Shown piece by piece: positions 13,979 through 61,127 of a stretch of DNA of 64,000 nucleotides (position 1 is the first letter of the stretch; every line of letters starts with the position of its first letter). Made by a program: the position numbers and the translations under genes. Under the pieces are notes generated by a model, which was not told the origin of the DNA, did no database searches, and saw only the letters and a list, made by a program, of their open reading frames with translations. The stretch comes from Schistocephalus solidus (taxonomy: Eukaryota; Platyhelminthes; Cestoda; Diphyllobothriidea; Diphyllobothriidae): positions 1 through 64,000 of the forward strand of contig WEDG01002508.1 in assembly GCA_017591395.1 (NCBI GenBank). Reading direction: 5' to 3'.

Positions 13979-13987
13979 AGTGTCCTT

Positions 13988-17540: not shown

Positions 17541-17990
17541 AGGTGGTGCAGACAGAGCAATCAGCAGTGGTCTACAGCATACCATGCCAAAACCGTGATG
17601 CGAGGTATGTTTGTATATTGTGCCAAGGCGTTCGCCTTGGCACAAGATTGCATGAACACCAGCTTGCAATCAACCGTAAGGATAAGCTGTCTATGGTTTA
17701 TGGCCAGGTACAACAGAAGAACCACAGTTTTGCCTTTGAGAAAGCGAGGGTAATCGGCCGAGCCAGCGATAAGATGGCCAGACTGCTGCCCGAAAGTTTG
17801 TCCTCCAAGGGCACACTTAACAGAGCCATAGACTTGCATCCCGCCAACCAGACGATATGCACAATGCTCGAGTCAGTTCGGGCAGGGGCAATGGCACAGT
17901 CGAGCGAAATTACGCGTGGCCGTCAGAGAAAAAGAAGAGATGAGCGGGCTTCCCCAGTGGTAACCGTATTTCATTGGATTCATTGGTAAT
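17541..17990 (+). pseudogene. PLE GIY-YIG endonuclease fragment (left copy)
   Basis: The plus-strand translation gives VVYSIPCQNRDARYVCIL...RLGTRLHEHQLAINRKDKLS, then FAFEKARVIGRASDKMARLL, NRAIDLHPANQ and a basic tail. This is the C-terminal GIY-YIG endonuclease region of a Penelope-like element (VY.IPC..C...YVGETG..L.TRL.EH). The second motif is damaged (YVCILCQG for YVGETGK) and no RT domain precedes it. The LINE A 5' end abuts it directly at about 17541. The part from 17649 onward is present again, inverted, at 53161-53501. Confidence 0.82.
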
Positions 17991-18117
17991 CCCTTGTTTT
18001 ATCATTCTTTCGCACACAATGATTTGTTTGTCTTCTCGACAATACAGCACGGCAATACTAGTTTACATCTGTGTTTAGTAACGGTGACGTAGAAATTCCG
18101 GGTATCTAGATTAATAC

Positions 18118-18954
18118 CTGAAATAAATGAGTCAGACGCAGATCCCGCAACTAGACTGGTCCACCTCTCTAACTCCAGTCCCACATATAGGAGGTCCAAG
18201 GACGAAGGCAGTACGCGGGCAAGCAGTTCTGCGTGATGGTCCGACATGCCGAGGAAAAGGCCTGGACGCAACTCGGGATGTCCACCTGCGTCAGGACAGT
18301 CGGTAGGTACTTGCTTTCTACCTACGCTGCTAACATGTGCAGAATCTGCCAGGTAAACGGCGACAGACTGACAGACGGATAAAACCGCGTCAGAAAAACG
18401 TGAGCGGAGGGCAGACAGCACAAGAGGCGGTAAGAGGCCTTGCATCTTGCGTTGGTAACTGAAAATATAGCATTATTAATTTGGTTTACTGCAAACATGT
18501 AAGTAGGAGTTATTTAAAAGGTAAAATGCAGAACATACTCAAGGGAGTAGCTCATTGACAAGCTCCCAAGGCAGGGAGCCGCTACCCGTTGCGGCAACAA
18601 AAACTGCCATTCCTGAGGTGAAATAATTGACGGCAATGAAGAGCGTTCTGTCATAGTTTCTTCTGTAACTTCCAAACGTTGAACCTCCTTGCCTGTTGCA
18701 AAGAAGTCGGCAAGGATTTGGAGAAAGCGCGCAATAACAGCGCATCGATTACGCTGACGGAAGGAACAGGTTGCAGCGATGCCGGGCAGAGCTAACCGCA
18801 AGAACTGGCGCATGCAAATTCCAGCAGGTGCCGTACCGGCTGTTTCGCAAGACCAGCGCGACTTCTTCGCATCCAGATGGCTAGTTTTTCGTAGATGCAA
18901 ATCATCCATATCTCGTAGGTATTGGAATATCACAGGGTATGCCGCCTCCGAACT
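18118..18954 (-). pseudogene. Unidentified host-like gene X, three exons, left copy
   Basis: Minus-strand exons 18954-18539, 18458-18335 and 18285-18118 match those of the right copy base for base in length (416, 124 and 168 nt). Exon a begins in phase 0 after TTTCGTCCACAG with SSEAAYPVIFQYLRDMDD and contains CAVIARFLQILADFF. Exon b encodes YQRKMQGLLPPLVLSALRSR. Exon c (VDIPSYVQAFSSAYRTITQN) runs to a TAG at 18153-18151. The protein looks helical and hydrophobic; I do not recognise it. The donor after exon b is GTTAGC here and GTAAGC in the right copy, so splicing of this copy may be weaker. No first or last exon is visible. Confidence 0.55.
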
Positions 18955-20724
18955 CTGTGGACGAAATAAAGTGCAAAATTAAAAAAAAACAACACGAGAG
19001 CTTTCAGGGCAGAAATAAACGACTTTCATTTTCGTATTTGGTCAATAAAAATACAAGTCGATATTGATAGTACAGAAGGCGAAAACCAAGGACAGAAAGG
19101 CCAAAGTCTTTAAACTATGGGTTGTTCGTCAACCCAAATGGGAAGTTGCGGTGAATCCAAATATAAATAAATGCCCTCCGAAAAAAGCATGTAGTTGATG
19201 TGCTTCCTCATGAAATGTTCACCGAAATAAGGATATATGCTTTTGATCAAGAAGGAGTACTTCAATAGGATTGGAATAGTTATTATCGTACAGCAAAATC
19301 AAAAATATATTTCAGTCACATGGGTATGTCGGATTGTGAACGCACTTCTTTCCGGATCTCTGCGAAAAACACACTTGGAGCACATGTAACAGCAAGTCAT
19401 GTTCCAAATTATTAGAGAATTGAAAAAATTTTAAAAACAAAAAGATACCTCTTCTTTGAATATAAAATTTTAAGAAGATATAAGCATCTACCAAGTGAGC
19501 ACCAGAAAGAATAGTTTCTATGAAATATATCTGAATCTATAACGACCTTGGAAATCAAGGGAAAAACATCGGAGTACCTAAGTCGTTATCTTTTACAGAG
19601 CGTGGTTTTTGCAATCCCCCGGAAAGCTCACTCGAAAGCCGGCATCGTGAGGTGACTGAAATATCTGGGGGTTATGCTGTAGGGTAAGTAATATATAAGC
19701 TCTTCTTAAGGAATCATTTCTAACCGAACACATATTGCAGAATTATGGTTAACATTTTACGGCATAGAACCTCTACTGTATCAAACACGTACTAGACCCC
19801 CCCACAACTGGTGGAACAATGCTCACGTGATACGTCAAGTGCACGGATGGACGGGTAAGTAAAACAAATAGGACAATGAATGCGATAGGGCTGGTTGTGG
19901 TAGTAATTTGCTTGCAAAGTATTCATTAGCTATGGGTTTCGCAGTGAGTTATGGTTGCCAGATCAAGTCCCCAAACGTGCTGGACATCAAAATAATTTGT
20001 TTGTTTTTTTTACGTTCACCATACTATCGATAAGGAGTCTGTGTAGCAAGAGTTGTTTCGAGCGTAAAACCTACAGTGAAGAAACAACTCTTTCTGTGAT
20101 GTCATGATCAGTAGTTTTGTTTACGAAGTCATTCAGTAAAGAGTATGGAATATTCGTAAAGCCTAGGACTATCGGAGGCAAGAAAATGATTGCTTTTTCA
20201 ACTCGACAGCATCCTGCTGAACCCAGAGCCCACAATAGGGTAGTTGGACCGAAGGCGAAGGGGGAGAAGGCACGCGAAAATGAATTTACTTGGAAACAGA
20301 TTTTTTTGTACCGATTAACTAAAAACCCATTAATCAGCAGAAGACCGCCGCACTACATCAGCAAAGAATAAAAGAGGAAACTGCGATTTCATTTACGAGA
20401 GCCCGCTGCATAGTGCGAAAGAAGAAGGCTTCCAGCTCAGATAGAAAAAAAGGCATCTTTACGGAAACAGTCGACTCACGGGATGAGGTTTACCTACAGT
20501 AGTGATCGCTCGGTGCGATGGGCTGCACCAAAATGTTTCCCTGGCAGAATTGCTGGAAAAACTGTGAGGGATTGCCGAAAGAAAACTTTTTAAGGCCCAG
20601 CGTCTATACGCATACATGTTGACGAAAAAATAAACCTTTATGCGATTGTAGAAAATGTACATTTACCAGGGGTTTTATTGTTTTACAAAAGAAAGTATCT
20701 CGGCGATGACAACACTTGGACAGT
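18955..20724. other. Unassigned spacer inside left arm
   Basis: AT-rich DNA with only short frames (for example 20117-20371 plus and 20459-20662 minus). Those frames recur in the right arm simply because the whole arm is duplicated. No family motif was seen. Confidence 0.5.
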
Positions 20725-21955
20725 CGGTTTCGACGAGGTTCACCATGTGCCCCATAGCAAGGTTGCGCAGGGGCAGTGACTTGCGCGTGAATTAGATTAT
20801 AGCGAGAGTAAACTTGCTCTGCATCTACCGCACTCTCTCCCCGTCTCCCACCTGGGTCCGGTGTTGAGGCAGAATGAAGAAAACCGGAAGCAGGATCGGG
20901 CGTAGGGTGGGGGTGCAGCCGGAGCCGCCCCTGAGCCCGGGTCCCACGGAGTGGGAGTGTTATAGAGGCCACATTAAGGAGCCATTGTAGCCTGACTCTC
21001 AGTCCGCCAGTCAACCCCTCTGCACGGTCGAAATTATCGCGTTAGTTGGCAAACTTCAAATACACAGCTTTTAGCACACCGTGACATTTTGAAGCAATTC
21101 AGATTGTTTAATATTGAGGAACATGCACTGAGCCGTCGACATGACTCTCTATCCCTATTCCCAGGCACCAGACACGGTCTGATCCGGTCAGTGTACTGGT
21201 GCGGGCCACACCCGATAGTTCGACCGTCGTAGTCCGACGATGTTCACCGTATGCTCCATGGAAGGGTGGAGCAGGGACGGTGACTTGCGCGTGAATTAGT
21301 TTTAAGTGATAGTAGCCTTGCGGTGCAGCTATCTCACTCTCTCCTCCTCCCCCACCTGGATCCGGTGTCTTGACCAAGTCAAGAAGAACACAGGTGGGAG
21401 AGGGTGCAGGTGGTTGCCGCCACCGGAACCGGCCCTAAACGTGCTTCCACACTTGGCTCGGATCCCATGGAGTGGGAGTGCCATAAAGGCCGCATTTAGG
21501 AGTCATTGCAACCTGACTCTCCGTCCGTCAGTCAGCCACTCCACACAGACTTTCACTGGACTGAATACGATGTCCTGATCATCCCGTCGGTTGACAACCT
21601 TCCAAGCCTCAGCTTTTAGCATTCCGTGATAGGTCCAGCGCGTCAGCTTTTTTATAGTGAAGAAAACTCGGTGAGCCGTCGACCTCGCTCGCTATTCCCA
21701 GGCCCCAGCTATTGTTCCAGCCGGTCTATTGTCTGGTACAGGGAATGGGCACATTTGACTCACCTAGCTAATGACCTCATTTGCGCGGGCCACATACCCG
21801 AAATGCCCCCAACACAAACACCAGGATTCCACTCTAAATGTGTAAGGGAAGGGCTCGGATGTCACACGAGTGAGATTGCCCTATATTTCACAGTAAGAAG
21901 AAGCTATTGCCTGACTCGGCCACTCCACGCAAACGCACACTGGGCCGGTGCTTAA
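20725..21955 (-). repeat. Two LINE-family 3' tails in tandem
   Basis: Two diverged copies of the LINE tail, both in the orientation of LINE A: about 20727-21130 and 21218-21955. Each starts with the module (GACGAGGTTCACC; GACGATGTTCACC) and continues through GGTGACTTGCGCGTGAATTA and the CTCTCTCC-rich segment. The first and the start of the second are also in the right arm (49740-50455, inverted). Confidence 0.8.
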
Positions 21956-23742
21956 CCCACTGTGATAGTCTCAGGATGGGCTGAGATATGAAACAAAACA
22001 TCGTTCACTCTCTTCGTGCCCAACGTCGATTAGTGTTCGTCCATCACTTCATCAAACCAACTCTGGCCCGGGGGCCTTCTCTCAAGAGAAGGACACGAGC
22101 ATCGCAGAGCAGACAGGTGTGTCCGTAGTATCTCACCGAGAGTGCACTCGGTACCAGTTACAGAGGATTGGTGGCTCGATTGAACCCGGCCGTGCAAATT
22201 GTTCATTCATTGCGTGCTACCTGCATAAATTTTCATTTTTTAAAGAAAAACTACAAACTATGAGATCTGAACGCGCATCAGGTGGTCATCGGTCGTTTGA
22301 GTCAGAACGCAACAAGCTGCTTTCACAAAGGTTTAATAATAAGCGCTAGAAGTCAGTTTATAATACAAAAAACGCATTGTTTTTACATTTGAGAAGTACA
22401 TTTGTTGTCTTCGGTGGCATCAAGGCGCACCGAGGTTCACCGTGAAAAGACTATTTAATCAAATACTTTGGTCTGAAGAGCAACTAATTATTTCCCGTAC
22501 TTTTCAGCTAGTACTAAATTTAACCCAACGAGGTTGTCAGTTTCAAAGGAAAAGGGACTGTAAACTCTGTGGTCTTGCAGAAGTCAGATCGAATTGCCAT
22601 CAGACTGTGGGGTTTTTTAATTAAACTAAGTATTGGTATTTTTTGCAAATACATTCATCCAGCGGCTATATTTAAAGAGAGGGTTACTTTCCTTGAAATA
22701 GTCTCGAGAAGCGACATGTATCGGACGCATAGAGGATGATGTTACTGACCTAATGTAGGCCTAAAAAAACGTGAAAAATAAACTGAATTTTTACTGATTC
22801 AGCACGGCATGGCACGTCGCGTGAAAGTGATTCGAGAGTATGATCCACTGCTCTGGGAGAAGACAGCTACCACGGGAAGTCTGCAAGTGCTTATTTGTCG
22901 AAGCTCCCTTGCATCGGTGAGCTAAATTACCTAATTGTCGGAACTTGCTCGCGGACAGTTCGGATTTACGCTCGAAACCATCATCAGAGACTGATGGATA
23001 AGTGTACTGGATACACATCGATTGGCACTTCTATGTCCCATGCGAAACCAATTTTGTTGCAAAGCTATTGCGAACTCTGGGACGATTTGTCGGCATCGGA
23101 GAACTTAGGTGTCAATTTGACCATCGTAATCCGACGATGTCCACCGTATGCCCCACAGAAGGGTAGTTCAGAGGCGGTGAATTGCGCGCAGTCGTTTTAA
23201 GTGATAGTAGACTTGCACAGCATTTATCGCACACTCTCTTACCTTACTCGCCTGTGTCCGATGTCAAACATATCCCATTGCGTCCGAGAGCCATAAATGG
23301 CAAAAGTGGTGGGGAGCGGCATGAGCCTGCACCTACGCATACCCTTGTTCCACACGTCTACCCACCCATGTTCGTCATTCGTTATGGGGGCTCAACCCAA
23401 ATAACGCCCGCTGCACTCTGATCTGGCTCCCGTATTGAGTCAGCGCAATGTCCACGCGGCACGCTTAGGGGCATGGACTTAGGCGTAGTATTAGCCAGTC
23501 GACTGACACATGGTGACACCTTAAAAACGGCCCTTGTACATACAGGAAAGGCTCCCCCGACAATCTAAATTATGAATGGGCAACGTAGTTGTTTCGGCGT
23601 CTCAAATTTCTGATGGCTGATTTAGACACCGCAGTCAGTTCGCGCAACGATTGTTGGTGGAACCTGAAGAGCATGTTTTCTAACAAACGAGATTATGGTA
23701 TCATTGTATGTCGCTATCAGCTTAGCTTATGCTCTTCAGTAG
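21956..23742. other. Unassigned, with one LINE-tail scrap
   Basis: Mostly featureless. A diverged LINE-tail fragment lies at about 23117-23330 (minus orientation; TCCGACGATGTCCACCG followed by GGTGAATTGCGCGC). No coding potential was recognised. Confidence 0.5.
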
Positions 23743-24159
23743 TTGACAATCGGGACCATTGAACAACTTCCGCGAATTGCATGCGATGAAATAATGAACC
23801 TCCTCGGATATGCCCAAACCCTTCAACTTCTAAGATTCTGTCTCAAAACATGCTTACATTTCGATAAAAGGACCTACGAGCAGATGAAAGACATGCCAGT
23901 GGGTTCGCCAATTTCAGGACTCAAGACTGAAGTGGTCTTGCAACCTTTTGACTTACTGCTCTTAAAATATCGAATTCTGATTCCTTATGTGAATGATACC
24001 TTTCATGTCATCGAATGGAATAAGAGGACATCTCATTGCCGTCATTTCCTGCATACATTTTACGATCGAGAGGAAGGGAGAAACCGATTGCCAGTCTTCT
24101 GCGACTTTATCGACTTCCGCAAAGATTATGATGTCCTAAAAACACAAATGCACAGTTAA
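23743..24159 (+). pseudogene. PLE reverse transcriptase fragment
   Basis: The open frame contains LLRFCLKTCLHFDKRTYEQM followed by PVGSPISGL, the PLE version of RT block 4 (F.G..YEQ..G.PMGSPIS). It then gives RILIPYVNDTFHVIEW, the catalytic block where PLEs have RYVDDTF. The first catalytic Asp of the pair is Asn here, so it is inactive. The flanking protein is diverged and ends at a stop at 24157. It belongs to a different PLE lineage from the 61-63 kb element. Confidence 0.8.
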
Positions 24160-25505: not shown

Positions 25506-25536
25506 GGCCAACATTTCAGACAACCGCATCAGGGTC
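25506..25536 (-). ncRNA. Degenerate hammerhead-like core
   Basis: On the minus strand CCTGATGCGG is followed, after a short hairpin-like segment, by GAAATGTTGG. The order CUGAUG(A) - stem II - GAAA is that of a hammerhead ribozyme, but A9 is replaced by C and stem II is very short. It is probably a decayed PLE 3'-end motif. Confidence 0.3.
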
Positions 25537-25539
25537 AGT

Positions 25540-26700: not shown

Positions 26701-26701
26701 A

Positions 26702-27001
26702 TTAAATGCATTTAGAAGATGCACACGTGTAAGTCTTCCTCGCGCCTGTACAATTACGAGGGTACAAGGGATGGACAGGGTTTATAAGCGTCCATTTGTT
26801 CATATCAATCGCTTTCAGACCGTCTGCATAGCTGAGGCTTTTGGGACTGGGAGGGGGCGGGGGAGGCAGGGTAAGCTGCGAGCGACGTTCGGGATCAAGT
26901 ACGGGGATATGAACATAACTGAGTGAACAACTCTTATCAGGCGGTGGGGATGGCGTTGGCCAGAGAGGAGAGAGGGCCCGTTTTAGAGTTTCGGACAGCA
27001 C
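26702..27001 (-). pseudogene. Possible PLE C-terminal tail fragment
   Basis: A 99-residue minus frame with a Pro-rich segment (RRSQLTLPPPPPPSPKSL). It resembles in order and composition the tail of the PLE frame at 30728-31435 (RQSQLRTPPPRPSLVYT). No nuclease motif is preserved. The call rests on that resemblance only. Confidence 0.35.
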
Positions 27002-27044
27002 AGTTTAATAAGGAAATATTCACAGAACTTAAGCATTTAGAAGG

Positions 27045-30695: not shown

Positions 30696-30698
30696 ATT

Positions 30699-35560: not shown

Positions 35561-38335
35561 ATGGCAGGGCACCTTGACCTCTTATCAATTTACTGGTCGT
35601 ATATGCACCCCTTCTATCTTCCTATTCCCCGAAATTTGGCTTATAAGTTTGGAAAAGAAGGCAAGAGCTGCTCTTTCATGACATACACGTCAACCGTTGA
35701 CATACTGGTGAGCAGAACATCGCGATTTAGTTGTCATAGTCACCACCTGATAATGAATAAATGCGACATGGTAAAATATGCATTTGAAGAATAAAATTTA
35801 CTACATCGAAACGGACAGAGGTATGCAGATATCCGGTACATTATCATCAGCCGCTGAGGCCATATGCGTCCACGAAAATAAAGCGAGATTTTACAGTATT
35901 GCGGCACTCGCTATTGCACATGAAGAACGCAGAAGAAACACCAGAACACATCTTCGCATGGCTAAGCATGCCTATCGCACATCGGCTGGCAGTCAACATG
36001 TATGCCAGAGGCATGAAGCTCAAGGAACAACTGGACGTGAGCAATCTGTTGTAGTTTTAAATTTCCAATATGATGACGATCCCTTTCACTAAACGGGGCA
36101 GACAGCAGGACAGTTTCGCTCATGAGGATTCGAGCGCCCAAGGCTTTTTGTACTGAAGACATGGCTGGCTAAACCCTGGGAAGGGAAAATTAATAAAACT
36201 TCGGATAACGGCGCTACCTGGCATTAAGATGGAAAAGAACGGTTGGAGGCATATAACTCTGGCACCAAAATAATTGACAGAAACGTTGTAAAACCCTTCT
36301 TATCAGGCATGGCGCATATGAAGCTATATTATTTGACGCATTTCCTAGCCGAGGGCGAACCCGGTCACCACACTCGGAGAGCACTGATATTCCTCAACGG
36401 CCGTATATTTTCTTTATATCCCCATTCGGTCATTGTTAAACTGCAAACCAGGTCTGGTGATGGCTACACACGCAAATGTACAGAAGACAGGTTCCCGTGC
36501 AACCCCGAATTTTTGAGTTAATAAAACTGCTGTTTCACTGCAAGCACCTCATCCTTCTTGGCATAAATGCGCGCCGCATTTGAAATGCATATGGAGTATA
36601 AAAAATAAGAAAACTAACGCTTTTAAGAAAATAATTTTCAAAATAAAATCATAGGTTAATTGATATAGCATATCCTAGGCGCCGAAAATCTCCTTAGAAC
36701 ACAGATAAAAATTAAAGTCATCATTATTCAGCAGTGCAAACATGGTATACGTAATAGGTCATCTCAAAAATTCACTTCAATGCCGAGTAAAAAGAGGAGG
36801 CAGTAGTATACCTGCCCGGTGATGAATTACTGAAAACATATGTATGAAGATTTGACTTTTTAAGTTTAACATGGGTATATCCACTGCATTAAAATACTGC
36901 TTAGAAGTAAGCTAAAGAGAGACAAGTTGGAATGCTGACACAGAGAATGCCACTAAACGCGGTGCCTATTTATAAAACCGATGACATTTTGCGGGTGCTT
37001 TATTGGCTGGCCTGCATATTTCTCGGGAAACAAAATGAGACTGAGCCGTTGTTTAAATTTCTTAATTAACTAACGGTCTTTATGAAATATTGCCGAAGCT
37101 CATTTGATGTTCCCCTCTGCATCGCATATTGTTCTCGATGAGGCGGACAAATCGACTAACTTGCGTACTGAACGTTGGTTACAGAGCTCAACCTATACAA
37201 ATGCTTTGGAATCCCATTCGTATGAGCAAAAAACAAGAATCGGATGCTAGGTTGAACGTTGGCGTTGAACAAAAGCACGCGGAGAAACGCAAGAAAAGGT
37301 AAAGTCTAGTTTTTACAGGGCACGAGTAGGATAGTAAATGAATGATAATGAATTTTTAACGTCTTCTTTCTTGAAAATTCTAGAAGATTCCCGTGCGCTG
37401 CTGTTTCTGCGATATAAAGGACACTCCTAGTGATAATTACCTATATAGGCGATTACTATCTGTGGAAAGGTTGCGACTGATATGAGGATATTGGTATTTT
37501 TTGCAGTTTTCTCGCTATTGACGTGATAGTGAAAGGTCGTAATAGGACGCAATGTAGCGGCAGCAGTGGTCTTTTCGACATTTTTATTGCATTGCGTATC
37601 TCTCGCCAACGATCAGTTTTTTTTGGGGAAGGGGGCTGCCTCCATCTCTACGTGTGAATGCTCCAAAGCCTATTATTTCGCAAACTCTGCGTCCGCCATA
37701 GATAATTTGTTTTCAATTTATTTCTATGCCCTTGTTTTTGAGTTCACCAGAATATTCTGTACAGCTCAAGGTTTAAGGCCCTCCAACGTATTCTTGTCCG
37801 TTGGGGTCGATGAAAGACATGACGGGCCTGTGACTGGTGCTCAACACAGGAAATGTGAAACTTATACTAAGGACTAGGCATCGTACTCATTCAAAACGGA
37901 TTCCGCTCGCGTACACCACTGCAGGTTTGCATACTGTGATCGAGAAGCCACCACCTGGGGTTGGGTATAGCTGGCTGGTGACGGCTTATAAGCCAGAAAT
38001 GGCCATTCCAGTCTTCATAGTCTTTGTTCGTCATGTTATTCTGCATATATATAATGTTCGAACCAAAGAGGTTCTTTGGGAAACGAAAACAAATTTTATT
38101 ATGTAAGTTTTGCTATCGTTTCCGAAAGTACTCCTTTTTTTCGAATTGTACTTCTTGGGATACCTATTTTCCAATTCGTGTATAAGTCACCAATATTGAA
38201 TTTGTTGGAATACGGACGATAACAACATTTGTAGGTTCTCTTATTTTTTATTGCTTTTTGGTAACTTTGTTTCCAGGGGCTAAATTTAGTTGACGTAGGC
38301 AGCGCCTTCTATTGAAGTTCTTTCTTCTATTCAAC
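35561..38335. other. Unassigned stretch upstream of NRDE2
   Basis: Frames at 35778-36092, 36243-36521 and 37837-38106 are open but unrecognised. The last could contain an upstream NRDE2 exon: an AG at about 37919 and a GTAAGT donor at 38103 would leave phase 2, which fits the phase of the first recognised NRDE2 exon. The encoded sequence does not resemble the family, so this is only a possibility. Confidence 0.3.
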
Positions 38336-41300
38336 AGACGTCAGCGCTCGGTGACTCCGGTAAAGAAACTTCTGGCGGAAACAGCACTGAAAAATGACTT
38401 TTATCTTATTGATCGTGGCTGCAACAAGAATATTTATAAATATTCATCAATTTATGAAGGAGAAGTGGCCAAATTTAACACCTCGTTGCAAAAGCGAATT
38501 TTAGGATTCAAGTATCTGCGTCTCCTAGATTTATCTCCAGAAGCGCTTAAGGAAGAGGCTAAGAAAAACAAACGGAAAAGATATTGTAGCAAACGGAATC
38601 ATAAACGGGTTCTCATGCTGGGAAAGTTTATCACCTCCTCAAAATACACACCTGGAAGTCCCGAACCTTTTGTTCCTATTCAAGAGTCCAGCCAGTCTGA
38701 ATCTTGTGTTGATGTCGTGCATGCACAAAAGTCAATAGATCTAGAGAAAGTGGCTCATTTAAACCGTCTTGTGTATAACCAACCGAAAAATATCAGGGCT
38801 TGGCTGGAGCTTATAGATCTTCAACTCAAAGACACAGAATTTTCCGGCTATTCATCTAGCAAAGTTGTCCAAAAGGAGGAATTCTGCTCACCACAGCGCT
38901 ATGTTCTTCTGGAAAAGCAGATAGCCACAGTTGAACGGGCATTGAGTGTAAATTCAGGAAACGTTCGTCTTCGACTTTTTCTGTCTGGATTACGTGAATT
39001 TGAAACGGAACTCATCGTAAGAGGCGTCCGCTCATCTTCAATCACCGAGTCCTCGACTGTATCACAGAAGAGTACTGTTGCGCGCGAGTGGTCAGAGTTT
39101 GTCTTTACCTGTCCACAGATAGTTTCCGTTTGGCGTGGATATATTGCTCATCTCCGCGGACGATTTTCCTCATCAGCTAACGCGGCCAGCGTTTTTAGTC
39201 GAATAGACTCGATCTACCAGCGTGCTCTGACGACTTTATCTGGAATTTTGTCTGGAAGGATTCTGTCACATAAGCCGACGGAAAATATGGCAGACTTAAC
39301 AGTAGGTATGCATTTTTTCCGTGTCTTCAGTCTTTTTGCTTTTCTAGCACATGGGAAGTACACCACAAATGTAAATTTACCAGACTTGACCATTCTGCTG
39401 TCTGTTTATTTTCCCTAAATAAATGACCCGTCAAAACACTTCAACCATTTCATTACAGTGCAGACCATATATTATCCAGTGGAAGGTAGAATCACGGGAC
39501 ATCGGTACATCAGACAGGTAATAACTTAAGAACCCAGTCATGTGAATAGGGCGTGAAGCACAAACTGCCTACAGTAGTGATCGGAAGCCCTTTCTGTATG
39601 TCTGCTCTCTTAATTAAACGACCAACATTCTTGACCGTGGGCAATCTTTAACTTGGAAGTAATAACTGCGAAACTCAAAGCTTTTATGTTAGCCCTGTGT
39701 GAGATCTAACGTTTCTTGATAAATTAGTTAGCGTCTGCTGTTCAAACCTCAAATGGGCCTCCTCGCTCTCGAAGTTAGGCAACTGAATGCATATCTCTTC
39801 CGTGAATTTCTCCGATTAACCTTCCTACACCAGCTTAACTTGTGTTCAAGTCTAAAATGTTTACCTATACCTTGATAGTAGCCTAGCCACTTGAAAATAT
39901 ATTTACTGTCATGGAGCTAACTTATTTGCTTTCTATGGCATGCATTTTATTTTTGCGAATTAATAAAACAGATCACTGCATTTATATCCCTTCCGAGCCT
40001 GTTGGCTCCTGTTACTCATGCTAATAATGACAAATCCACAGACCCGAAAAGGGATCCTGACTCTGCACCAACTGTTCAATCACTAATTGGCCTAGTTTAT
40101 TTGACCGTTCTGCGTATTTGTGGTAATATGTTTGCATCTTCCGTTGCTGAAAATTTCCTCTAAGTAGAAATATAACATTGGTTGAAAGCCTAACAAATGA
40201 TCCATCGTGATGGTCAAACCGCCAGTTCGAAACGAAGTGAAGCAAGCCATCTGAGAGTAGTTTTTACGTTGTACTAGGATTATGAACTACCAGTGTAGAA
40301 TTGGTCTCGCCAACACTGTCTTTGTTCAGGTCCTAGCTAGCTGAAGCACTTAACGGGTCCCTTTTGAGCAAAAAATCATACCAATATTTGCTATCCGCCT
40401 AAATTAAAAATTCGCAAGGCACCTCAAGGAAATACGGCTTCCTCGATCAGGTGTGCTCAAAGCGTAAATTTTCTTATGGAAAAAGTAAAGAATTAGCTGT
40501 CGGCCTCATCTTATTTAGATCGGGTTTCTTTGCGTATTGTAGAACCACCGTCAACTTTTAGTTTGCTGATTACAGATGCAACTATAGTACAAAAATTTTA
40601 GTATTGCATTGAATCGCTAGCAGAAAATGCCAATCACTTTCTTTCCAATTTTTTTCCAGAACTTCTGGCTGAGTACTGCTGGTGGCTGAGCCAAACAGGC
40701 TTCACAGAACGTGCCATCTCTATGTGGCAGGCGGCAATCGAGTTTTCTTGCTTCTGCCCCCCGCGTCTAAAGTCCACCCACTATGTCAGTTTTGAACAAC
40801 GGCACGCTGAATTCGAAAAGTTTTGGACCAGCGATGTCCCTCGGTTTGGCCATCCGCTGGCTCGGGGATGGTCAACCTGGTTTTCCACTGGCGGTGTAAC
40901 TGAGCCCCGTGACTGTGGATCCCAACAACAGGTATCTTCCAACTTGGCCGCGGACCTGGATGAAGACTGGAGTCCCTCGTCGGCCACAGCAGCCGCCCGG
41001 TGGCAGCAAATTTCCACTGCCTGGAACCGTAAGTTCCCCTTTCCTGAATTGCCCACTGATATAAGGACTTTTCAAGTCATCATACCACCTTCGCTTCCTC
41101 TCGTCTTCCGATTACTCCTTACTCTTTCTTTCCAAGCCTCTCATGCGCATCTCACCCGTAAACTCTATTAATACGTTATAAAGAAACCTCCGAGGCTGCG
41201 GAGGACGTGCTTCTCAACTTCGATTCTACCGCTCCGGAAGCGGAGAAACTGGGGACCGTTGCGGTGACGGCGGTGGCGACTGCTGTTTCGAACTCAGTGC

Positions 41301-44300
41301 AAACGAAGGGTTCCTCTTCGTTTTCTGGTTCGCACCACCTAACAACCCATCCACTCACTTCCAGCCTCAGCCGGAAGCACATGCGTGGCCTTGCATGGTT
41401 GGGTTTGGAACGAACCCGCGAATCCGTTGGTTGGTTGCCGGCCTGCAGCACTCTCTCGGGTCAAGCATTAGCTGCTGTTGAGGACCCTGAACGTCTTGTG
41501 CGTTTCGACGAGGTGCGGCCTTGCCTCCTCGAGGTACATCTTCAGCCGGACCTTACGGAAAGTGAGGTCGTTAGACGTCAGCAGCGAATGCTCCTCTTGT
41601 TTTTGGAGTTCCTTGGAGTGTGGGATGCCGAGGTTGCGCAAATGTACAACTTTCCGCCAGGTAAAATATCCTTGCAATAATAGCAAGCGTTTACATTGAG
41701 CTAAAATATTTAACGACAGGAAAGTCTCTTTGCCTCAATTTGCGACCCGAGAATTTTGATTTTGACTTCATCGCACAGTACACAGCTTAACTATCGAAGA
41801 ATCTCCTGTAGTCCTTTAGTTCACCTTCAAGAACAACCCAGTTAACTAGGTTGTATGATGGCGCTTTTCTGATGGAAAACTGCTTGGTCACCTGCATATC
41901 AATGTACTGTTGAACGTTTCCTTGAAGGAAATTTAGCTTCTTATGGTCTATATGTTATATCTTATCACAATTCGCTTCGACTTAACACACTCTTAGTTGC
42001 ATATTTTTGAAGCGTGGCTCAAATTTTTTCATTTGCTTCTAGTTTCTGAACTAGCGGAAAATAAACAGAAACTTGAAAAATGGGTACTCCTGTTTAATTT
42101 TTTGCACATTAAAATAGGGCCGGAAATTTGATCATGGACTTTCAATGCACGGGCGTTTAACACGGGATAAATCGAGAATGGGGGCAGATTTGACGGGGTC
42201 ACTTCCCTGCCATTCTTTCCAACTGAAGGCAATTGTCTTACTCTTAAATTTTTAGCCACTGATGTGTGTGCACGCTGTTCAGCGTAGTCAAACCGACATT
42301 AACTAGGAAGTAATAGAAAACGCGGATAGCAGAAATCCGTAGAGGAGTACGCCTTGACACGCCGATTCTGTTTTTTTTATTAACTGGAGAACGATTTAAA
42401 CATAAGAAGAGGAATGCAGACAAAGCATGACCCAAATAAGGGCCTAAAAGGGAATTACAAACGTGCGCGATGAATATAATAAGGAAGTTTACAACTTTCT
42501 GAAAAAAGGATTCAGCGCGGAAAGTTTAGGAGAGATTAGAAGATTAAGTCACACCAGGATATTGGGTAGGCGTACTTCACTGGAAATAATGTGAAGACAT
42601 GATGTTAGAATCGGGGGGCAGCCTGTAGACATCGAATAGATTGCTGCCTGTTTATTAAAAGACCACTGTTTCACGATCAATTTAAAGTGTAATTCAAGCT
42701 CTAATAATTTGGGAATACTTGTCCTCGCTGGAACTGCGACCAGTGACATAATAGTCAGCAACTGGTACTCGGCCGATCTCCAAACGCATCCGCCTTCCTC
42801 GCCGTGACCAAATATGGTCAGGACTTGCCACCGTTTGGCGCATCAGGTACGGCTGCAGATAGCGATAACGGGTTGACACAGACAACAATAGAGTAGACAC
42901 TATTAACACTCCTTTGGACAGGAGCCTCACCGTGCATGATACAATGACAACGACCACCATGTAGAATTCGCCAGATAGGCATGATGTAGAGAGTGACTTG
43001 TTAGGTTTTATTGGCGGCCGAGTGAGGGCAGCACTGCATGCGTTAAAACCAAAATGTGTGGCCCTTCATAACGGGCATAGGCAAACGAAGCAGTGGGTCC
43101 GGTGGAGTGCGCTTTACACGCAACCAGTCTCGGAATATCGGTAACCGATTTATCTATATTCCAAACAGTTAATAATTGGGTGGCCTAAGGGCGTTCTTAC
43201 CATCGTGCTATATAAACGTGGAGTATGATGAAACTAATTTTTAAATTGCAAATAGTTTCAATAGTATATGCTTTCGAAGGTTTTTTTTCCCCAGTGAGAT
43301 CTCCATATGTCACTGACTGTATACTTCTTGCTACAAGGCCAGCCTTCGACTGTTCGTGAGGAATGCACTGATGTGCCTTGGGATGGTTGCTCCACTGTCG
43401 ACCCCACATTCTTCCCCACCCATGCACCAGGCGACTTTTTGAGCCTATCAGCTAACTGATGGTGGAATTGGGCGCGGTGATTGACGTGGCGTGAAAACCT
43501 ACGTCCGAGGGATGTCACACGCTCATGGAGTGATATTTAAGGGTTCACACGGACTCAGCACAACTCGATAAACATGTGTAATGAGCCAGTCTGACTTCCG
43601 TTTCGCTTAGCGCTCCAGCAGTGCAGCCCGTTATGGGAACACAGGAATACTGCACACCTAGTTAATCACTTGGCGAAACAGGCTTTTAAGTTTCCTTAAG
43701 CATGCTCTTTCTTCTTGTCCTCTGTTATCCTAGACCTCTGTATGATGCATGAATTGTCAGATCAAAGTTTTCTCCAACGCCAGCGCATTAGTCCACGCCA
43801 GTTTGGCTTCATCTGGCTTCGACCGTCCAACAGTCAGAGCTCGCCCTCCAGTGTATCCAATGTCACCCAGCGCACTCAGTTGGCCGTAGCTTCTGCGGCT
43901 CTTGAGCAGTGCTCACTCCTATTTCCTCAGGATATTGACTGGCAGTCGACCATCGGACGTCTGCGATTTGCCCACGTGACACAGCTCTTCGTACGCACGA
44001 TTGCCACACAGAAGACACCAACAAAGGTTAGGCACACAAATGCGGGCGCTAGAATTTGATCTTTTTGTCAAGTTGACTATCGACAAGTATTGGCACCAGC
44101 CAGCAAAGACTGGACTTACTTATTTACTATTTATCTACCCATACCCTGGCGGGTAACGTCTGACTTTTAAACTTGCGTCTCGTTAGTTGTTAGCACCCGC
44201 CAGTTAAACGATGGGGTTTGCTATCTGTCCGCTGCTACTGGAACTATTTAAAGCCACGTAGGAATGATCCGATTGCAGAATGGAATATAGGCGTTCCGCT

Positions 44301-47300: not shown

Positions 47301-48841
47301 TGTCGTGCCGATTCGCTAGATTGTATGATTGCAACCTTTTATAGGTGGGCAGTGTACTCGGTGTTTTTGGAGTCTGCAGTTGACATCGCTTTTTCAGCCA
47401 GAATACTTCTTGCCTAACCGCCCGCTCACTTTATCAACTTCAGACTGTGTTGGGAACATGGCGACGGAGGGCCAAACAGTTGCTGTCCTCACCGACTGCC
47501 CAAGCGGACGTGAGTATGTGGTCTGCCTTCGCCTGTGGACTCGCTGTAGCAGCTCATGTCTGCTCTGCCTACAGACCAACCGACGTGGAGACGTTCGCTG
47601 CCGAGGCTCGTCGGGTGTTCACCTCCACCTTGCGGATGTATCGCATTTCTCTGCCGTCGCCACTCGCGACAGCAGCAACCCCATCAGTCGGACTGGATAG
47701 CTTCACTTTCCTTCTACCGCGCCTGCAGATTGCACACGTAATACACCAGCTTATCCTTTGATTTTGCAACGATAAGTCGTTAGAGCCTCCAGAAATGGTC
47801 ATTTGAGTCTCCCTCGACATCTCAGTCGCACTATTACTTTTCACTATGCGACTGCCTCTAAAAGCTCTATATTACAAGTAAACAAAGCAAAGCGGAGCGA
47901 GCGTGTTCCTCTAGCGTTACGTCTTTGACTGCCTTTGTGAAAAAGTAACCCAGTGAGATCATCCTAAAAGGACAAATTTGGGCTCAAATTGCGAAGAGAG
48001 CCGCTAACATCTCTCGATGAAATCGCGAATTTTGTAAGACGATGAACAACACTTATTTTCAGAGAAACCTAGTCCTATAAAGTGAGAGACAACCTTAAAC
48101 AGCCAAAACGATGTATCCTTGGTTTTTGGGCGACAAAATGTCACCGTTTCTCACGGGTATCTTAAAAAATCGGTGTCTTGGGCATAATTGCCGGAAGTTG
48201 GAGACGCTACGAGGATAAATTTTGGCACACAACGCCCACACTTGCCTCCGATGTGGTTATATTTCGGGCTCACCGACCATACCCAGTTATAAAAAATCAA
48301 TGGCTTGGCTTCCCCCTTTCATCACCCAACTCTCCAAAACATATACAGTTTCAACTTTGCCATTCAGAAGTTGGCTGTGTTCATTGAATAAGGAAAATGC
48401 AGCCGTTACTTCGCTTTCAGGGAGAACCTGCTACTTACTGATGTTGACCGACTTATGAAAACCCCATGTCGCATGTCTTTCTAACTGCCTCGCTTTTAGC
48501 GTTACTTGGAGTTCGAACTCTTTGTGGGTGCTCCCGTGGACGCTCCACGTCCTTCCTCCGAGGCCTGTTTCGCTCGCGTGCTCCAACTTCTCCACACGGT
48601 AGCTACTGGGGCCTGCGTCAACGTCCAGGCCGAGGCCTTTGCAGTCCCAAGTCCAGTTGAGCTGGCGGAGGCTGCAACTCTCCTGGCCCAGAGCCTTGAG
48701 ACCCTAAAGGCAGCCCTCGAGGCACACACACCCACTTCGGAGGTAGACTACCTTCAGCGCACTGCTGCCCAGTGTGCCCAAGTCGCTGGTCTGCTCTCCT
48801 CCTTTCTGCTACATATCCAACTCCTAGCGCTGGATGAAACC
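38336..48841 (+). CDS. NRDE2: NRDE2 (nuclear exosome regulator), partial at both ends
   Basis: NRDE2 is a nuclear HAT-repeat protein that binds the RNA helicase MTR4 and restrains the nuclear exosome; in worms it acts in nuclear RNAi. Exons: 38336-39305, 40660-41028, 41184-41660, 43734-44026, 47444-47737 and 48500-48841. All phases match (2/1/1/1/0/0), 915 codons in total. Family landmarks in order: FYLIDRGCNKNIYKYSSIYE (N-terminal motif), DLEKVAHLNRLVYNQPKNIR and WLELIDLQ (start of the NRDE-2 domain), IATVERAL, QIVSVWRGYIAHLRGRF, ERAISMWQAAIEFSCF, FEKFWTSDVP, EDPERLVRFDEV, LLFLEFLGVWD, AEARRVFTSTLRMYR and RYLEFELFVGAP (HAT-like). Against the roughly 1160-residue vertebrate protein, the first 150 or so and last 250-300 residues are missing. 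Exon 6 ends at a good GTAAGT, but no C-terminal HAT exon follows; LINE-tail repeats and the inverted-duplication arm do. Confidence 0.9.
44884..45105. mobile_element. MITE-like element with TTAGGG-like core
   Basis: Lies in NRDE2 intron 4. Terminal inverted repeats of about 20-25 bp (GGTGGTCTTGCGCTAAG at 44891-44907; its diverged reverse complement CTTAGCCCAAGACCACC at 45080-45096) enclose about 170 bp of degenerate GTTAGG/TTAGGG-like repeats. No coding sequence. No clear target-site duplication was found. Confidence 0.55.
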
Positions 48842-48917
48842 GTAAGTCAGCGCTATCAGATGCTTTTTGCCTTGTACGTGTGTGAATTACCCATTGGGTG
48901 TGGCCCGCCATTGGGTG

Positions 48918-50000
48918 TGGTGGCACGCCTAGGGGCGGCTAGGACTTAGGGGACCCGGCCGTGCCAGCCACCTGCGTCCTCTCCCGCCTCCGGTCTTCTT
49001 GACTCTGTCTTGACACCGGGTTCAGGTGGGGGAGGAGGAGAGAGTGCGGTAGATGCAGCGCAAGTCTACTATCACTTTAACCTAAATCACGTGCAAGTCA
49101 CCGTCCCTGCTCCACTTTCCCATGGAGCATACGGTGGACATCGTCGGACTACGACGGTCGAACTGTCGTGTGTCGGGTGTGGCCCGCGTGCCCCCTAAAC
49201 GGGCCATGTGGTAGATGCATTGGACCAACACGGGGGCCGCATCAGGGCACGGCATGGGTTATTCGGGTTGTGCTCCGCTAACAAATGCCGAACATGGAGG
49301 TGGTGTGGTGGCACACCTAGGGGCGGCTAGGACTTTGGGGCCCAGCCGCGCTAGCCACCTGCGTCCTCTCCCGCCTCCGGTCTTCTTGACTCTGTCTTGA
49401 CACCGGGCTCAGGTGGGGGAGGAGGAGAGAGTGCGGTAGCTGTAGCGCAAGGCTTCTATCACTTAAAACTAATTCACGCGCAAGTCACCGTCCCTCAACC
49501 ACCCTTCCGTGGAGCATACGGTGGACATCGTCGAAATCGACAGTCGAACTATCGTGTGTGTCCCCTAAACGGGCCACGTGGTAGATGCGTTGGACCAACA
49601 CGGGGTCCACACCAGGGCACGGCATGCGTTATTCGGGTTGAGCTCTGCTAACAAATGCCGAACATGGAAGGTGTGGTGGCACGCCTAGGGGCGGCTAGGA
49701 CTTAGGGGACCCGGCCGCGCCAGCCACCTGCGTCCTCTCCCGCCTCCAGTATTCTTGACTCTGTCTTGACACCGGGTTCAGGTGGGGAAGGAGGAGAGAG
49801 TGCGGTAGCTGCACCGCAAGGCTACTGTCACTTAAAACTAATTCACGCGCAAGTCACCGTCCCTGCTCCACCCTTCCATAAGGGATACGGTGAACATCGT
49901 CGGACTACGACGGTCGAACTATCGGTTTTGCCCGCATCAGTACACTGACCGGATCAGACCGTGTCTGGTGCCTGGGAATAGAAATAGAGAGTCATGTCGA
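48918..50000 (+). repeat. Tandem array of 370-385 bp units sharing the LINE tail
   Basis: The landmark GGCACGCCTAGGGGCGGC or a one-base variant recurs at about 48920, 49309 and 49679, giving periods near 385 and 370 bp. Each unit continues with GACTCTGTCTTGACACCGGG, GGAGGAGAGAGTGCGGTAG and a terminal module ending GGTCGAACTATC, the same module that ends the LINE 3' tail (here reversed relative to LINE A). The part before CCTAGGGGCGGC (for example GGGCCACGTGGTAGATGC) is not in LINE A. Confidence 0.8.
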
Positions 50001-52195
50001 CGGCTCAGCGCATGTTCCTCAATATAAACAATCTGAATTGCTTCAAAATGTCACGGTGTGCTAAAAGCCGTGTATTGGAAGTTTGCCAACTAACGGGATA
50101 ATTCCGACCGCGCGGTTAGCCCAGTGTGTGTTTCTGCAGAGTGTTTGACTGGCGGACTGAGAGTCAGGCTACCATGGCTCCTTAATGTGGCCTCTATAAC
50201 ACTCCCACTCCGTGGGACCCAGGCTCAGGGGCGGCTCCGGCTACGCCCCCCACCCTGCGCCCGATCCTGGTTCCCGTCTTCTTCATTCTGCCTCAACACC
50301 GGACCCAGCTGGGAGACGGGGAGAGAGTGCGGTAGATGCAGAGCAATTGTACTCTCGCTATAATGTAATTCACGCGCAAGTCACTGTCCCTGCGCAACCT
50401 TGCTATGGGGCACATGGTGAACCTCGTCGAAACCGACTGTCCAAGTGTTGTCATCGCCGAGATACTTTCTTTTGTAAAACAATAAAACCCCTGGTAAATG
50501 TACATTTTCTACAATCGCATAAAGGTTTATTTTTTCGTCAACATGTATGCGTATAGACGCTGGGCCTTAAAAAGTTTTCTTTCGGCAATCCCTCACAGTT
50601 TTTCCAGCAATTCTGCCAGGGAAACATTTTGGTGCAGCCCATCGCACCGAGCGGTCACTACTGTAGGTAAACCTCATCCCGTGAGTTGACTGTTTCCGTA
50701 AAGATGCCTTTTTTTCTATCTGAGCTGGAAGCCTTCTTCTTTCGCACTATGCAGCGGGCTCTCGTAAATGAAATCGCAGTTTCCTCTTTTATTCTTTGCT
50801 GATGTAGTGCGGCGGTCTTCTGCTGATTAATGGGTTTTAGTTAATCGGTAAAAAATCTGTTTCCAAGTAAATTCATTTTCGCGTGCCTTCTCCCCCTTCG
50901 CCTTCGGTCCAACTACCCTATTGTGGGCTTTGGGTTCAGCAGGATGCTGTCGAGTTGAAAAAGCAATCATTTTCTTGCCTCCGATAGTCCTAGGCTTTAG
51001 GAATATTCCATACTCTACTGAATGACTTCGTAAACAAAACTACTGATCATGTCATCACAGAAGAGTTGTTTCTTCACTGTAGGTTTTACGCTCGAAACAA
51101 CTCTTGCTACACAGACTCCTTATCGATAGTATGGTGAACGTAAAAAAAACAAACAAATTATTTTGATGTCCAGCACGTTTGGGGACTTGATCTGGCAACC
51201 ATAACTCACTGCGTAACCCATAGCTAATGAATACTTTGCAAGTAAATTACTACCACAACCAGCCCTATCGCATTCTTTGTCCTATTTGTTTTACTTACCC
51301 GTCCATCCGCGCACTTGACGTATCACGTGAGCATTGTTCCACCAGTTGTGGGGGGGTCTAGTACGTGTTTGATACAGTAGAGGTGCTATGCCGTAAAATG
51401 TTAACCGTAATTCTGCAATATGTGTTCGGTTAGAAATGATTCCTTAAGAAGAGCTTATATATTACTTACCCTACAGCATAAGCCCCAGATATTTCAGTCA
51501 CCTCACGATGCCGGCTTTCGAGTGAGCTTTCCAGGGGATTGCAAAAACCACGCTCTGTAAAGATAACGACTTAGGTACTCCGATGTTTTTCCCTTGATTT
51601 CCAAGGTTGTTATAGATTCAGATATATTTCATAGAAACTATTCTTTCTGGTGCTCACTTGGTAGATGCTTATATCTTCTTAAAATTTTATATTCAAAGAA
51701 GAGGTATCTTTTTGTTTTTAAAATTTTTTCAATTCTCTAATAATTTGGAACATGACTTGCTGTTACATGTGCTCCAAGTGGGGTTTTCGCAGAGATCCGG
51801 AAAGAAGTGCGTTCACAATCCGACATACCCATGTGACTGAAATATATTTTTGATTTTGCTGTACGATAATAACTATTCCAATCATACTGAAGTACTCCTT
51901 CTTGATCAAAAGCATATATCCTTATTTCGGTGAACATTTCATGAGGTAGCACATCAACTACATGCTTTTTTCGGAGGGCATTTATTTATATTTGGATTCA
52001 CCGCAACTTCCCATTTGGGTTGACGAACAACCCATAGTTTAAAGACTTTGGCCTTTCTGTCCTTGGTTTTCGCCTTCTGTACTATCAATATCGACTTGTA
52101 TTTTTATTAACCAAATACAAAATGAAAGTCGTTTATTTCTGCCCCTGAAAGCTCTCGTGTTGTTTTTTAATTTTTGCACTTTATTTCGTCCACAG

Positions 52196-53032
52196 AGTTC
52201 GGAGGCGGCATACCCTGTGATATTCCAATACCTACGAGATATGGATGATTTGCATCTACGAAAAACTAGCCATCTGGATGCGAAGAAGTCGCGCTGGTCT
52301 TGCGAAACAGCCGGTACGGCATCTGCTGGAATTTGCATGCGCCAGTTCTTGCGGTTAGCTCTGCCTGGCATCGCTGCAACCTGTTCCTTCCGTCAGCGTA
52401 ATCGATGCGCTGTTATTGCGCGCTTTCTCCAAATCCTTGCCGACTTCTTTGCAACAGGCAAGGAGGTTCAACGTTTGGAAGTTACAGAAGAAACTATGAC
52501 AGAACGCTCTTCATTGCCGTCAATTATTTCACCTCAGGAATGGCAGTTTTTGTTGCCGCAACGGGTAGCGGCTCCCTGCCTTGGGAGCTTGTCAATGAGC
52601 TACTCCCTTGAGTATGTTCTGCATTTTACCTTTTAAATAACTCCTACTTACATGTTTGCAGTAAACCAAATTAATAATGCTATATTTTCAGTTACCAACG
52701 CAAGATGCAAGGCCTCTTACCGCCTCTTGTGCTGTCTGCCCTCCGCTCACGTTTTTCTGACGCGGTTGTATCCGTCTGTCAGTCTGTCGCCGTTTACCTG
52801 GCAGATTCTGCACACGTAAGCAGCGTAGGTAGAAAGCAAGTACCTACCGACTGTCCTGACGCAGGTGGACATCCCGAGTTACGTCCAGGCCTTTTCCTCG
52901 GCATATCGGACCATCACGCAGAACTGCTTGCCCGCGTACTGCCTTCGTCCTTGGACCTCCTATATGTGGGATTGGAGTTGGAGAGGTGGACCAGTCTAGT
53001 TGCGGGATCTGCGTCTGACTCATTTATTTCAG
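52196..53032 (+). CDS. Unidentified host-like gene X, three exons, right copy
   Basis: Exons 52196-52611 (acceptor TTTCGTCCACAG, donor GTATGT), 52692-52815 (acceptor TATTTTCAG, donor GTAAGC) and 52865-53032 (49 nt intron before it). Exon a: SSEAAYPVIFQYLRDMDD, a basic LRKTSHLDAKKSRW, then ICMRQFLRLALPGIAATCSF, CAVIARFLQILADFFATGKE and LPQRVAAPCLGSL. Exon b: YQRKMQGLLPPLVLSALRSR, then SVCQSVAVYLADSAH. Exon c: VDIPSYVQAFSSAYRTITQN, CLPAYCLRPWTSYMWDW, stop at 52997. Without splicing the last intron, the frame continues for another 100 residues instead. The helical, leucine-rich look suggests a HEAT-like scaffold, but I cannot name it. Exon a starts in phase 0, the phase at which NRDE2 exon 6 ends, so a joined transcript is possible. 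Confidence 0.6.
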
Positions 53033-53160
53033 GTATTAATCTAGATACCCGGAATTTCTACGTCACCGTTACTAAACACAGATGTAAACTAGTATTGCCG
53101 TGCTGTATTGTCGAGAAGACAAACAAATCATTGTGTGCGAAAGAATGATAAAACAAGGGA

Positions 53161-53501
53161 TTACCAATGAATCCAATGAAATACGGTTATCACTGGGGAA
53201 GCCCGCTCCTCTCTTCTTTTTCTCTGACGGCCACGCGTAATTTCGCTCGACTGTGCCATTGCCCCTGCCCGAACTGACTCGAGCCTTGTGCATATCGTCT
53301 GGTTGGCGGGATGCAAGTCTATGGCTCTGTTAAGTGTGCCCTTGGAGGACGAACTTTCGGGCAGCAGTCTGGCCATCTTATCGCTGGCTCGGCCGATTAC
53401 CCTCGCTTTCTCAAAGGCAAAACTGTGGTTCTTCTGTTGTACCTGGCCATAAACCATAGACAGCTTATCCTTACGGTTGATTGCAAGCTGGTGTTCATGC
53501 A
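53161..53501 (-). pseudogene. PLE GIY-YIG fragment (right copy, truncated)
   Basis: The minus-strand reading is MHEHQLAINRKDKLS, FAFEKARVIGRASDKMARLL, NRAIDLHPANQ and the basic tail, matching 17649-17990 almost exactly. It lacks everything before the HEH motif, where the duplication ends. Confidence 0.85.
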
Positions 53502-53547
53502 TATGTTTACATATCATGCCCATAGGGAAATCAAATAGTTCACTCAA

Positions 53548-56687: not shown

Positions 56688-56689
56688 GA

Positions 56690-61093: not shown

Positions 61094-61127
<34 letters not shown>

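What the first reader, a model, noticed from the sequence alone, without database searches (positions are those of the whole stretch)
17649..53501. Nearly identical about 3.8 kb inverted duplication flanking NRDE2
Arms 17649-21420 and 49730-53501 are reverse complements with only scattered differences (one and two residue changes in two long frames). They hold host-like exons, a PLE piece and LINE tails. Such a young inverted pair 28 kb apart could permit inversion of the NRDE2 segment between the arms, or could be a haplotype or assembly misjoin.
Basis: seen in the sequence. Interest (0 to 1): 0.75.

Follow-up and report, generated by a model that had tools for sequence, protein, structure and literature searches.

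The report
Inverted partial copy of NRDE2 exons
In a tapeworm genome, a 3.6-kilobase piece from the middle of the NRDE2 gene (two exons with neighbouring intron sequence) appears a second time, backwards, about 16 kilobases upstream of the same gene; this looks like an ordinary young partial duplication, though a flip between the two copies would cut NRDE2 in two.

Summary
The inverted pair is real: 17649-21426 and 49711-53501 match in reverse complement at 96.7% over 3,804 columns. The core 17649-20711 differs at 35 of 3,052 sites; the excess differences lie in LINE 3' tails at the inner ends. But the arms do not flank NRDE2. The worm is Schistocephalus solidus or very close. NRDE2 runs from 37107 to about base 76360 of contig C2080, whose first 64 kb is this window. 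The right arm lies inside the gene and holds exons 8 and 9; exons 10-11 follow at 64.9 and 76.2 kb. The left arm is an orphan inverted copy of exons 8-9, about 16 kb upstream of exon 1. In the 603.7-Mb assembly the core was found full-length only at these two places. Best reading: a young inverted DNA-level partial duplication, probably inert. Inversion between the arms is conceivable but would separate exons 1-7 from 10-11, as in the human F8 intron-22 inversion. No inverted allele was seen. Artefact is unlikely but needs reads. Known kind; low interest.

The parts
17649..21206 (-). Left arm: derived inverted copy of NRDE2 (part of intron 7, exon 8, intron 8, exon 9, part of intron 9). Similarity runs on to 21426 through LINE-tail sequence.
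   Evidence: blastn self-comparison, windowed divergence; two full-length places for 18000-20711 in the genome
49931..53501 (+). Right arm: parental segment inside NRDE2 (end of intron 7, exon 8, intron 8, exon 9, start of intron 9).
37107..37298 (+). NRDE2 exon 1 (first coding exon of P0001); the frame breaks once against P0001 near 37228-37232; phase to exon 2 not checked
   Evidence: tblastn of P0001; donor read
38338..39305 (+). NRDE2 exon 2 (Pfam NRDE-2)
40660..41028 (+). NRDE2 exon 3 (Pfam NRDE-2)
41184..41660 (+). NRDE2 exon 4 (Pfam NRDE-2 match below the curated cut-off)
43734..44026 (+). NRDE2 exon 5
47444..47737 (+). NRDE2 exon 6
   Evidence: start corrected
48500..48841 (+). NRDE2 exon 7, last exon before the arm
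52196..52611 (+). NRDE2 exon 8, in the right arm
   Evidence: splice sites and phase, P0001/P0002
52692..53032 (+). NRDE2 exon 9, in the right arm; its donor leads to exon 10 at C2080:64890 (phase counted by hand)
18539..18954 (-). Exon 8 copy in the left arm; splice-site motifs identical, 2 codon differences (1 nonsynonymous)
18118..18458 (-). Exon 9 copy in the left arm; splice-site motifs identical, 7 codon differences (2 nonsynonymous)
17551..17949 (+). 5'-truncated PLE fragment at the outer end of the left arm; the right arm keeps only 53201-53501 of it.
   Evidence: alignment with genome copies L003-L008; Pfam empty
17618..17645 (.). Perfect palindrome, 13-bp arms and 2-base loop, 3 bases outside the outer end of homology; stands where the PLE copies L005 and L008 have other sequence
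   Evidence: one of two distinct ones with arms of 13 bp or more and loop up to 4 in 134 kb
20712..21426 (-). LINE 3' tails at the inner end of the left arm (tail 1 20712-21205; tail 2 from 21207, running on to 21917)
48914..50448 (+). LINE 3' tails at the inner end of the right arm, with a 369-bp tandem array 48914-49924 (2.7 copies), in NRDE2 intron 7
12149..17551 (-). Long LINE (reverse transcriptase by Pfam; endonuclease by my reading of the frame) abutting the PLE fragment at 17551

Best explanation
A stretch from the middle of NRDE2 (end of intron 7, exon 8, intron 8, exon 9, start of intron 9; about 3.56 kb) was copied at the DNA level, in inverted orientation, into a transposon-rich place about 16 kb upstream of NRDE2 exon 1. 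The right arm is the parent and still part of the gene; the left arm is the derived partial copy, without the other exons and most likely without function. Shown: the gene continues through the right arm and not the left, intron 8 and splice motifs are retained in both, two full-length places in the assembly, TE sequence at both ends. Inferred: one event, by repair or replication template switching with both ends in TE DNA (LINE tail inside; PLE fragment with a rare palindrome outside). Inversion by recombination between the arms is possible in principle, would cut NRDE2 after exon 9, and has not been observed.
For: Arms. Gene identity: exons 2-9 spliced from the window agree with P0001 (S. 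solidus) at 1,110 of 1,117 aligned residues, 17 gap positions apart; P0002 (Sparganum proliferum) 85.7%. Exons 2-9 form one open chain of 1,166 residues; exons 10-11 were found downstream on the same strand at C2080:64890-65289 and about 76214-76360 (the scripted check of the exon-11 start failed and the start is read). Beside the left arm the strong NRDE2 matches are exons 8 and 9 only; the P0001 tail also matches LINE tails near 12641 and 28241 weakly. Copy number: 49 matches listed for 18000-20711, 2 full length, the other 47 all within 19187-19787, a dispersed repeat in intron 7 (40 of 578 candidates scored). Polarity: at 2 of 3 residue differences the right arm agrees with P0001, at the S/P site also with P0002; at the third the left arm agrees with P0001. 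Palindrome beside the outer end: one of two distinct in 134 kb.
Against: At the outer end the left copy keeps more of the PLE (17551-17648) than the presumed parent, so one must add a later loss on the right or an exchange with another PLE copy on the left. LINE tail 1 inside the arms is four times as diverged as the core (23 of 493 against 35 of 3,052; Fisher p = 9e-7), which one event and one clock do not explain; against 15 LINE copies the differences split evenly (right-private 11, left-private 11, tie 1) and are not CpG-driven (6 of 23 against 9 of 35 touch CpG). Codon differences are 3 nonsynonymous to 6 synonymous, fewer nonsynonymous than neutral expectation (one-sided p = 0.018), although one of the two copies is constrained anyway. 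One of the 3 residue differences points the other way in polarity.
Confidence: 0.8

Rival explanations
1. Assembly or haplotype artefact: the left arm is a misplaced allele or chimeric join of the NRDE2 segment.
For: Arm divergence (1.15% of core sites; 3 of 246 codons nonsynonymous) is of the order of the difference between this assembly and P0001 (7 of 1,117 residues). The NRDE2 frame breaks against other S. solidus records in exon 1 and near the end of exon 10, so the contig may hold errors. No reads are available.
Against: Two junctions to different flanks in one contig without N over 134 kb; the right flank, the left inner flank and exons 2-5 match full-length only themselves; the left copy has PLE sequence that the right lacks.
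Confidence: 0.12
2. An inversion-competent pair that recombines repeatedly, so that both orientations of 21.4-49.7 kb occur in worms, with an NRDE2 cut after exon 9 in one of them; the low divergence of the core reflects gene conversion between the arms.
For: Inverted, close, long, near-identical arms; core divergence a quarter of that of the adjoining LINE tail. NAHR between inverted paralogues gives inversions (PMC3449122, passage read). The Hydatigera and Hymenolepis models P0004 and P0005 also stop near the end of exon 9, though in Hydatigera a separate record, P0011, carries the rest.
Against: Only one orientation is seen, and P0001 shows the same order through most of exon 9. The inverted order would lose exons 10-11, which are conserved in the Sparganum, Mesocestoides and Schistosoma models. 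Faster change in LINE tails could equally explain the step.
Confidence: 0.06
3. A mobile element or retrotransposition product (LINE 3' transduction, processed copy or fold-back element) rather than a segmental duplication.
For: LINE tail at one end, PLE piece at the other.
Against: Two full-length places in the genome; intron 8 and its splice motifs retained; by eye no A-rich tail or flanking target repeat at 17649 / 53501 (not searched systematically).
Confidence: 0.05

Closest known systems
Young partial gene duplicates (reviewed in PMC3449122; passages and part 1 of 3 of section 10 read)
   Same: Incomplete copy of one gene; the longer copy, matching the single-copy outgroup gene, is taken as ancestral; low divergence. 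The part read gives partial duplicates as 21% of 290 young C. elegans pairs, 27% of new genes in D. melanogaster and 53% of D. pseudoobscura pairs, but about 7% in yeast.
   Different: Here the copy takes internal exons only, is inverted, lies upstream, and has transposon sequence at both ends.
Human F8 int22h repeats and the intron-22 inversion (PMC3211038, PMC4422130: search listing and start of abstract only; topology and repeat size recalled)
   Same: One copy of a repeat lies inside a gene and an inverted copy outside it, so recombination between them splits the gene.
   Different: Here the arms are shorter and less alike (comparison with int22h from recall), contain coding exons, lie 28 kb apart, and no inverted allele is known.
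Polymorphic inversions mediated by inverted repeats (PMC3961182: title and start of abstract only)
   Same: Architecture that permits inversion.
   Different: No second orientation observed here.

Membership tests
Partial gene duplicate (DNA-mediated) | Derived copy lacks part of the ancestral gene | tested here: met
   Left arm holds exons 8-9; no other strong NRDE2 match beside it
Partial gene duplicate (DNA-mediated) | Introns retained (not a processed retrocopy) | tested here: met
   Intron 8 and parts of introns 7 and 9 present; four splice motifs identical in both arms
Partial gene duplicate (DNA-mediated) | Ancestral copy identified with an outgroup | tested here: met
   P0002 and P0003 proteins continue past exon 9 into the exons that follow the right arm on C2080; protein level only, no outgroup DNA
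Inversion-mediating inverted repeat pair | Inverted, same contig, long near-identical arms | tested here: met
Inversion-mediating inverted repeat pair | Both orientations of the spacer occur | not testable with these tools
   No reads or population data; only the reference order seen
Dispersed mobile element | Several copies with common ends | tested here: not met
   Two full-length places in 603.7 Mb (40 of 578 candidates scored)
Retrocopy / LINE transduction | Poly(A) or simple-repeat tail and target-site duplication | tested here: inconclusive
   None apparent by eye at 17649 / 53501; no systematic search made

The most novel reading that the evidence does not exclude
A transcript starting upstream of 17.6 kb and reading on into NRDE2 would carry antisense exons 9-8 followed by sense exons 8-9, and could fold into long double-stranded RNA and give small RNAs against NRDE2, a gene whose Pfam family is described as 'necessary for RNA interference'; or the arms flip so that some worms make an NRDE2 cut after exon 9. 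Nothing here tests either.
Probability: 0.04. Interest if true: 0.6.

Novelty: new member of a known kind. Interest (0 to 1): 0.22.

Why it matters
Mainly as a correction: the inverted copy does not frame NRDE2 but is made from it, so gene models, copy-number calls and short-read mapping over exons 8-9 can be confounded. If worms with the inverted order exist, they would be natural NRDE2 truncation mutants, as in the F8 inversion. It is also a small, readable case of a partial duplication with transposon sequence at both ends in a tapeworm genome.

Tried and rejected
Gene identity of the arm frames: Pfam gave no match above a cut-off (none; two weak ones, E 0.12 and 0.15, in the right exon-8 frame), so at first I took exons 6-9 for a separate gene; the protein search then showed that they are NRDE2. 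The query carried 15 extra residues from a wrongly chosen exon-6 start, corrected. A separate protein record for the left copy: none found (1 hit among 3,913 candidates, P0008, Dibothriocephalus latus, 270 aa). Third-party gene conversion of LINE tail 1 by other LINE copies: I reject it, since a tract from copies about 23% different should bring dense one-sided changes and the 23 differences are sparse and two-sided. CpG decay: rejected. Literature: NRDE2 with cestode gave 0 papers; of inverted duplication / PLE / flatworm 15 of 20 were listed, of S. solidus / genome assembly / contigs / PacBio 15 of 9,203, of S. solidus / TEs / Diphyllobothri 12 of 57, of inverted repeats / gene conversion / partial duplication 12 of 13, of inverted duplication / siRNA / hairpin 8 of 65; none of the titles and abstract openings listed concerns this locus. 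PMC12471100 and PMC12090676 were searched for passages only; the passages shown did not say how this assembly was sequenced. Whether the P0001 tail fits 59343-59438 better than other LINE copies in the genome stayed open, because that search did not complete.
Full report
Observation. A blastn self-comparison finds one long inverted pair, 17649-21426 against 53501-49711, 3,804 columns, 96.7% identical. Column by column the difference is uneven: 35 of 3,052 sites in 17649-20711, 23 of 493 in the LINE tail 20712-21205, 28 of 220 in 21206-21426, gaps set aside. The last figure is within the range of matches between LINE tails in this window, so the duplicated unit ends near 21206 / 49931 or is blurred there.

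What the arms contain. Pfam recognised NRDE-2 in exons 2 and 3 and, below its cut-off, exon 4; it gave nothing reliable in the arm frames. A protein search with the spliced exons returned 7 proteins (7,988 candidates scored), all with the NRDE-2 Pfam domain, led by P0001 (Schistocephalus solidus) and P0002 (Sparganum proliferum). P0002 runs through both arm exons; P0001 runs through exon 8 and most of exon 9. The corrected splice chain of exons 2-9 is open for 1,166 residues and differs from P0001 at 7 of 1,117 aligned residues, with 17 gap positions, so the window is S. solidus or very close. P0002, P0003, P0006 and P0007 go on past exon 9 into a conserved stretch absent from the window; P0004 and P0005 stop near the end of exon 9.

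The rest of the gene. The window's own assembly is held: 603.7 Mb, 8,019 contigs; the window is bases 1-64000 of contig C2080, 266,724 bases. I fetched C2080:64001-134000 and found the missing exons on the + strand: tblastn matches at 64886-65272 and 76199-76357, which with the splice sites gives 64890-65289 and about 76214-76360 (the scripted exon-11 start failed and is read by hand). NRDE2 therefore spans 37107 to about 76360, and the right arm is an internal piece of it: exons 8 and 9 (52196-52611, 52692-53032) with flanking intron. Near the left arm the strong matches are exons 8 and 9 on the - strand (18954-18539, 18458-18118). The right arm is thus the parent and the left arm an orphan inverted partial copy about 16 kb upstream of exon 1. 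NRDE2 is not 'flanked' by the arms. Exon numbers count from the first coding exon of P0001; earlier untranslated exons were not sought.

Copy number and assembly. With 18000-20711 as query the own genome gives 49 listed matches: 2 full length, both on C2080, and 47 shorter ones, all within 19187-19787 (40 of 578 candidates scored). The right flank 53490-58400 (55 matches), exons 2-5 (38338-44026; 8 matches) and the left inner flank 21900-27700 (42 matches) each match full length only themselves; the rest are short. No allelic contig or empty site was seen. P0001 lies on a 39,310-base contig, so in another assembly or record, and its model ends in 32 residues, from residue 1181 on, that match 59343-59438 at 96.9%, in order beyond the right arm; other LINE copies in the genome could not be tested for a better match. 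An artefact is therefore unlikely, but reads would decide. On the other side, the contig breaks the NRDE2 frame once in exon 1 against P0001 and once near the end of exon 10 against P0009, which could be residual sequencing error or real.

Ends. Outside, the right copy of the PLE fragment stops at 53501 at sequence that matches only itself, whereas the left copy runs 98 bases further, to 17551, where a long LINE on the - strand begins. Just outside the end of homology the left copy has a perfect palindrome, 17618-17645, where the PLE copies L005 and L008 have other sequence; L003, L004, L006 and L007 lay in the other orientation and were compared only by blastn, where they too match to 17551. 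It is one of two distinct palindromes with arms of at least 13 bp and loop up to 4 in 134 kb. Inside, both copies end in LINE 3' tails. I infer a repair or replication template-switch origin with ends in transposon DNA; the order of events at the outer end is not settled, because the presumed parent has the shorter PLE.

Age and selection. Core divergence is 1.15%; no clock is available. Of 9 codon differences in 246 codons 3 are nonsynonymous (p = 0.018 against neutrality), but the parental exons are constrained, so this is no evidence for function of the left copy. Both left frames are still open, which is expected by chance (0.71). The higher divergence of LINE tail 1 (Fisher p = 9e-7) is unexplained: against 15 LINE copies its differences are evenly private to the two arms (11 and 11, 1 tie) and not CpG-linked. 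Later gene conversion of the core between the arms, or faster change in the tail, would both fit.

Consequences. Recombination between the arms would flip 21.4-49.7 kb, joining exons 1-7 to the left exons 8-9 and leaving exons 10-11 behind. Read past the exon-9 donor, either arm codes 37 more residues and then a stop. This is the topology of the human F8 intron-22 inversion (PMC3211038 and PMC4422130, listing and start of abstract only; topology recalled). That NAHR among inverted paralogues gives inversions is stated in PMC3449122 (passage read), which also reports partial duplicates as frequent among young duplicates in C. elegans and Drosophila though not in yeast (part 1 of 3 of section 10 read). 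Nothing here shows that inversion occurs.

Verdict. Real, correctly located, misdescribed in relation to NRDE2, and of a known kind: a young inverted partial gene duplication.

Noticed in passing
12149-17551: LINE whose 5' end (17495-17551) repeats its own 3' terminus (12149-12205, 94.7%); of three genome copies compared, L027 and L028 continue there into a long 3'-tail copy and L026 carries several tail matches, suggesting tandem or terminal-repeat LINEs.
   Followed up: partly
48914-49924: 369-bp tandem array (2.7 copies) of LINE 3' tails inside NRDE2 intron 7.
   Followed up: no
L009 (C2080:64890-65289) and window 37228-37232: NRDE2 frame breaks against other S. solidus records (P0009, P0001): residual assembly error or real frameshift.
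   Followed up: partly
P0009, P0011: Database records named Pex2_Pex12 (S. solidus) and Rab-GAP TBC (Hydatigera) match the NRDE2 C-terminal exons, so they look like split and misnamed gene models.
   Followed up: partly
61096-61859 and 62954-63718: A second inverted pair, 95.7% identical, next to (AT)n runs; PLE-like by my reading of the frames, without a Pfam match for the two frames tried.
   Followed up: no
19187-19787 and about 51365-51965: Dispersed repeat with matches on both strands, perhaps MITE-like, in intron 7 within both arms.
   Followed up: no
25751-26301: Dispersed repeat of about 530 bp, mostly 86-90% identical to many genome copies.
   Followed up: no
5160-5744: Frame with a Band-7 (SPFH) Pfam match, prohibitin-like by my reading, on the + strand upstream of the left arm.
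   Followed up: no
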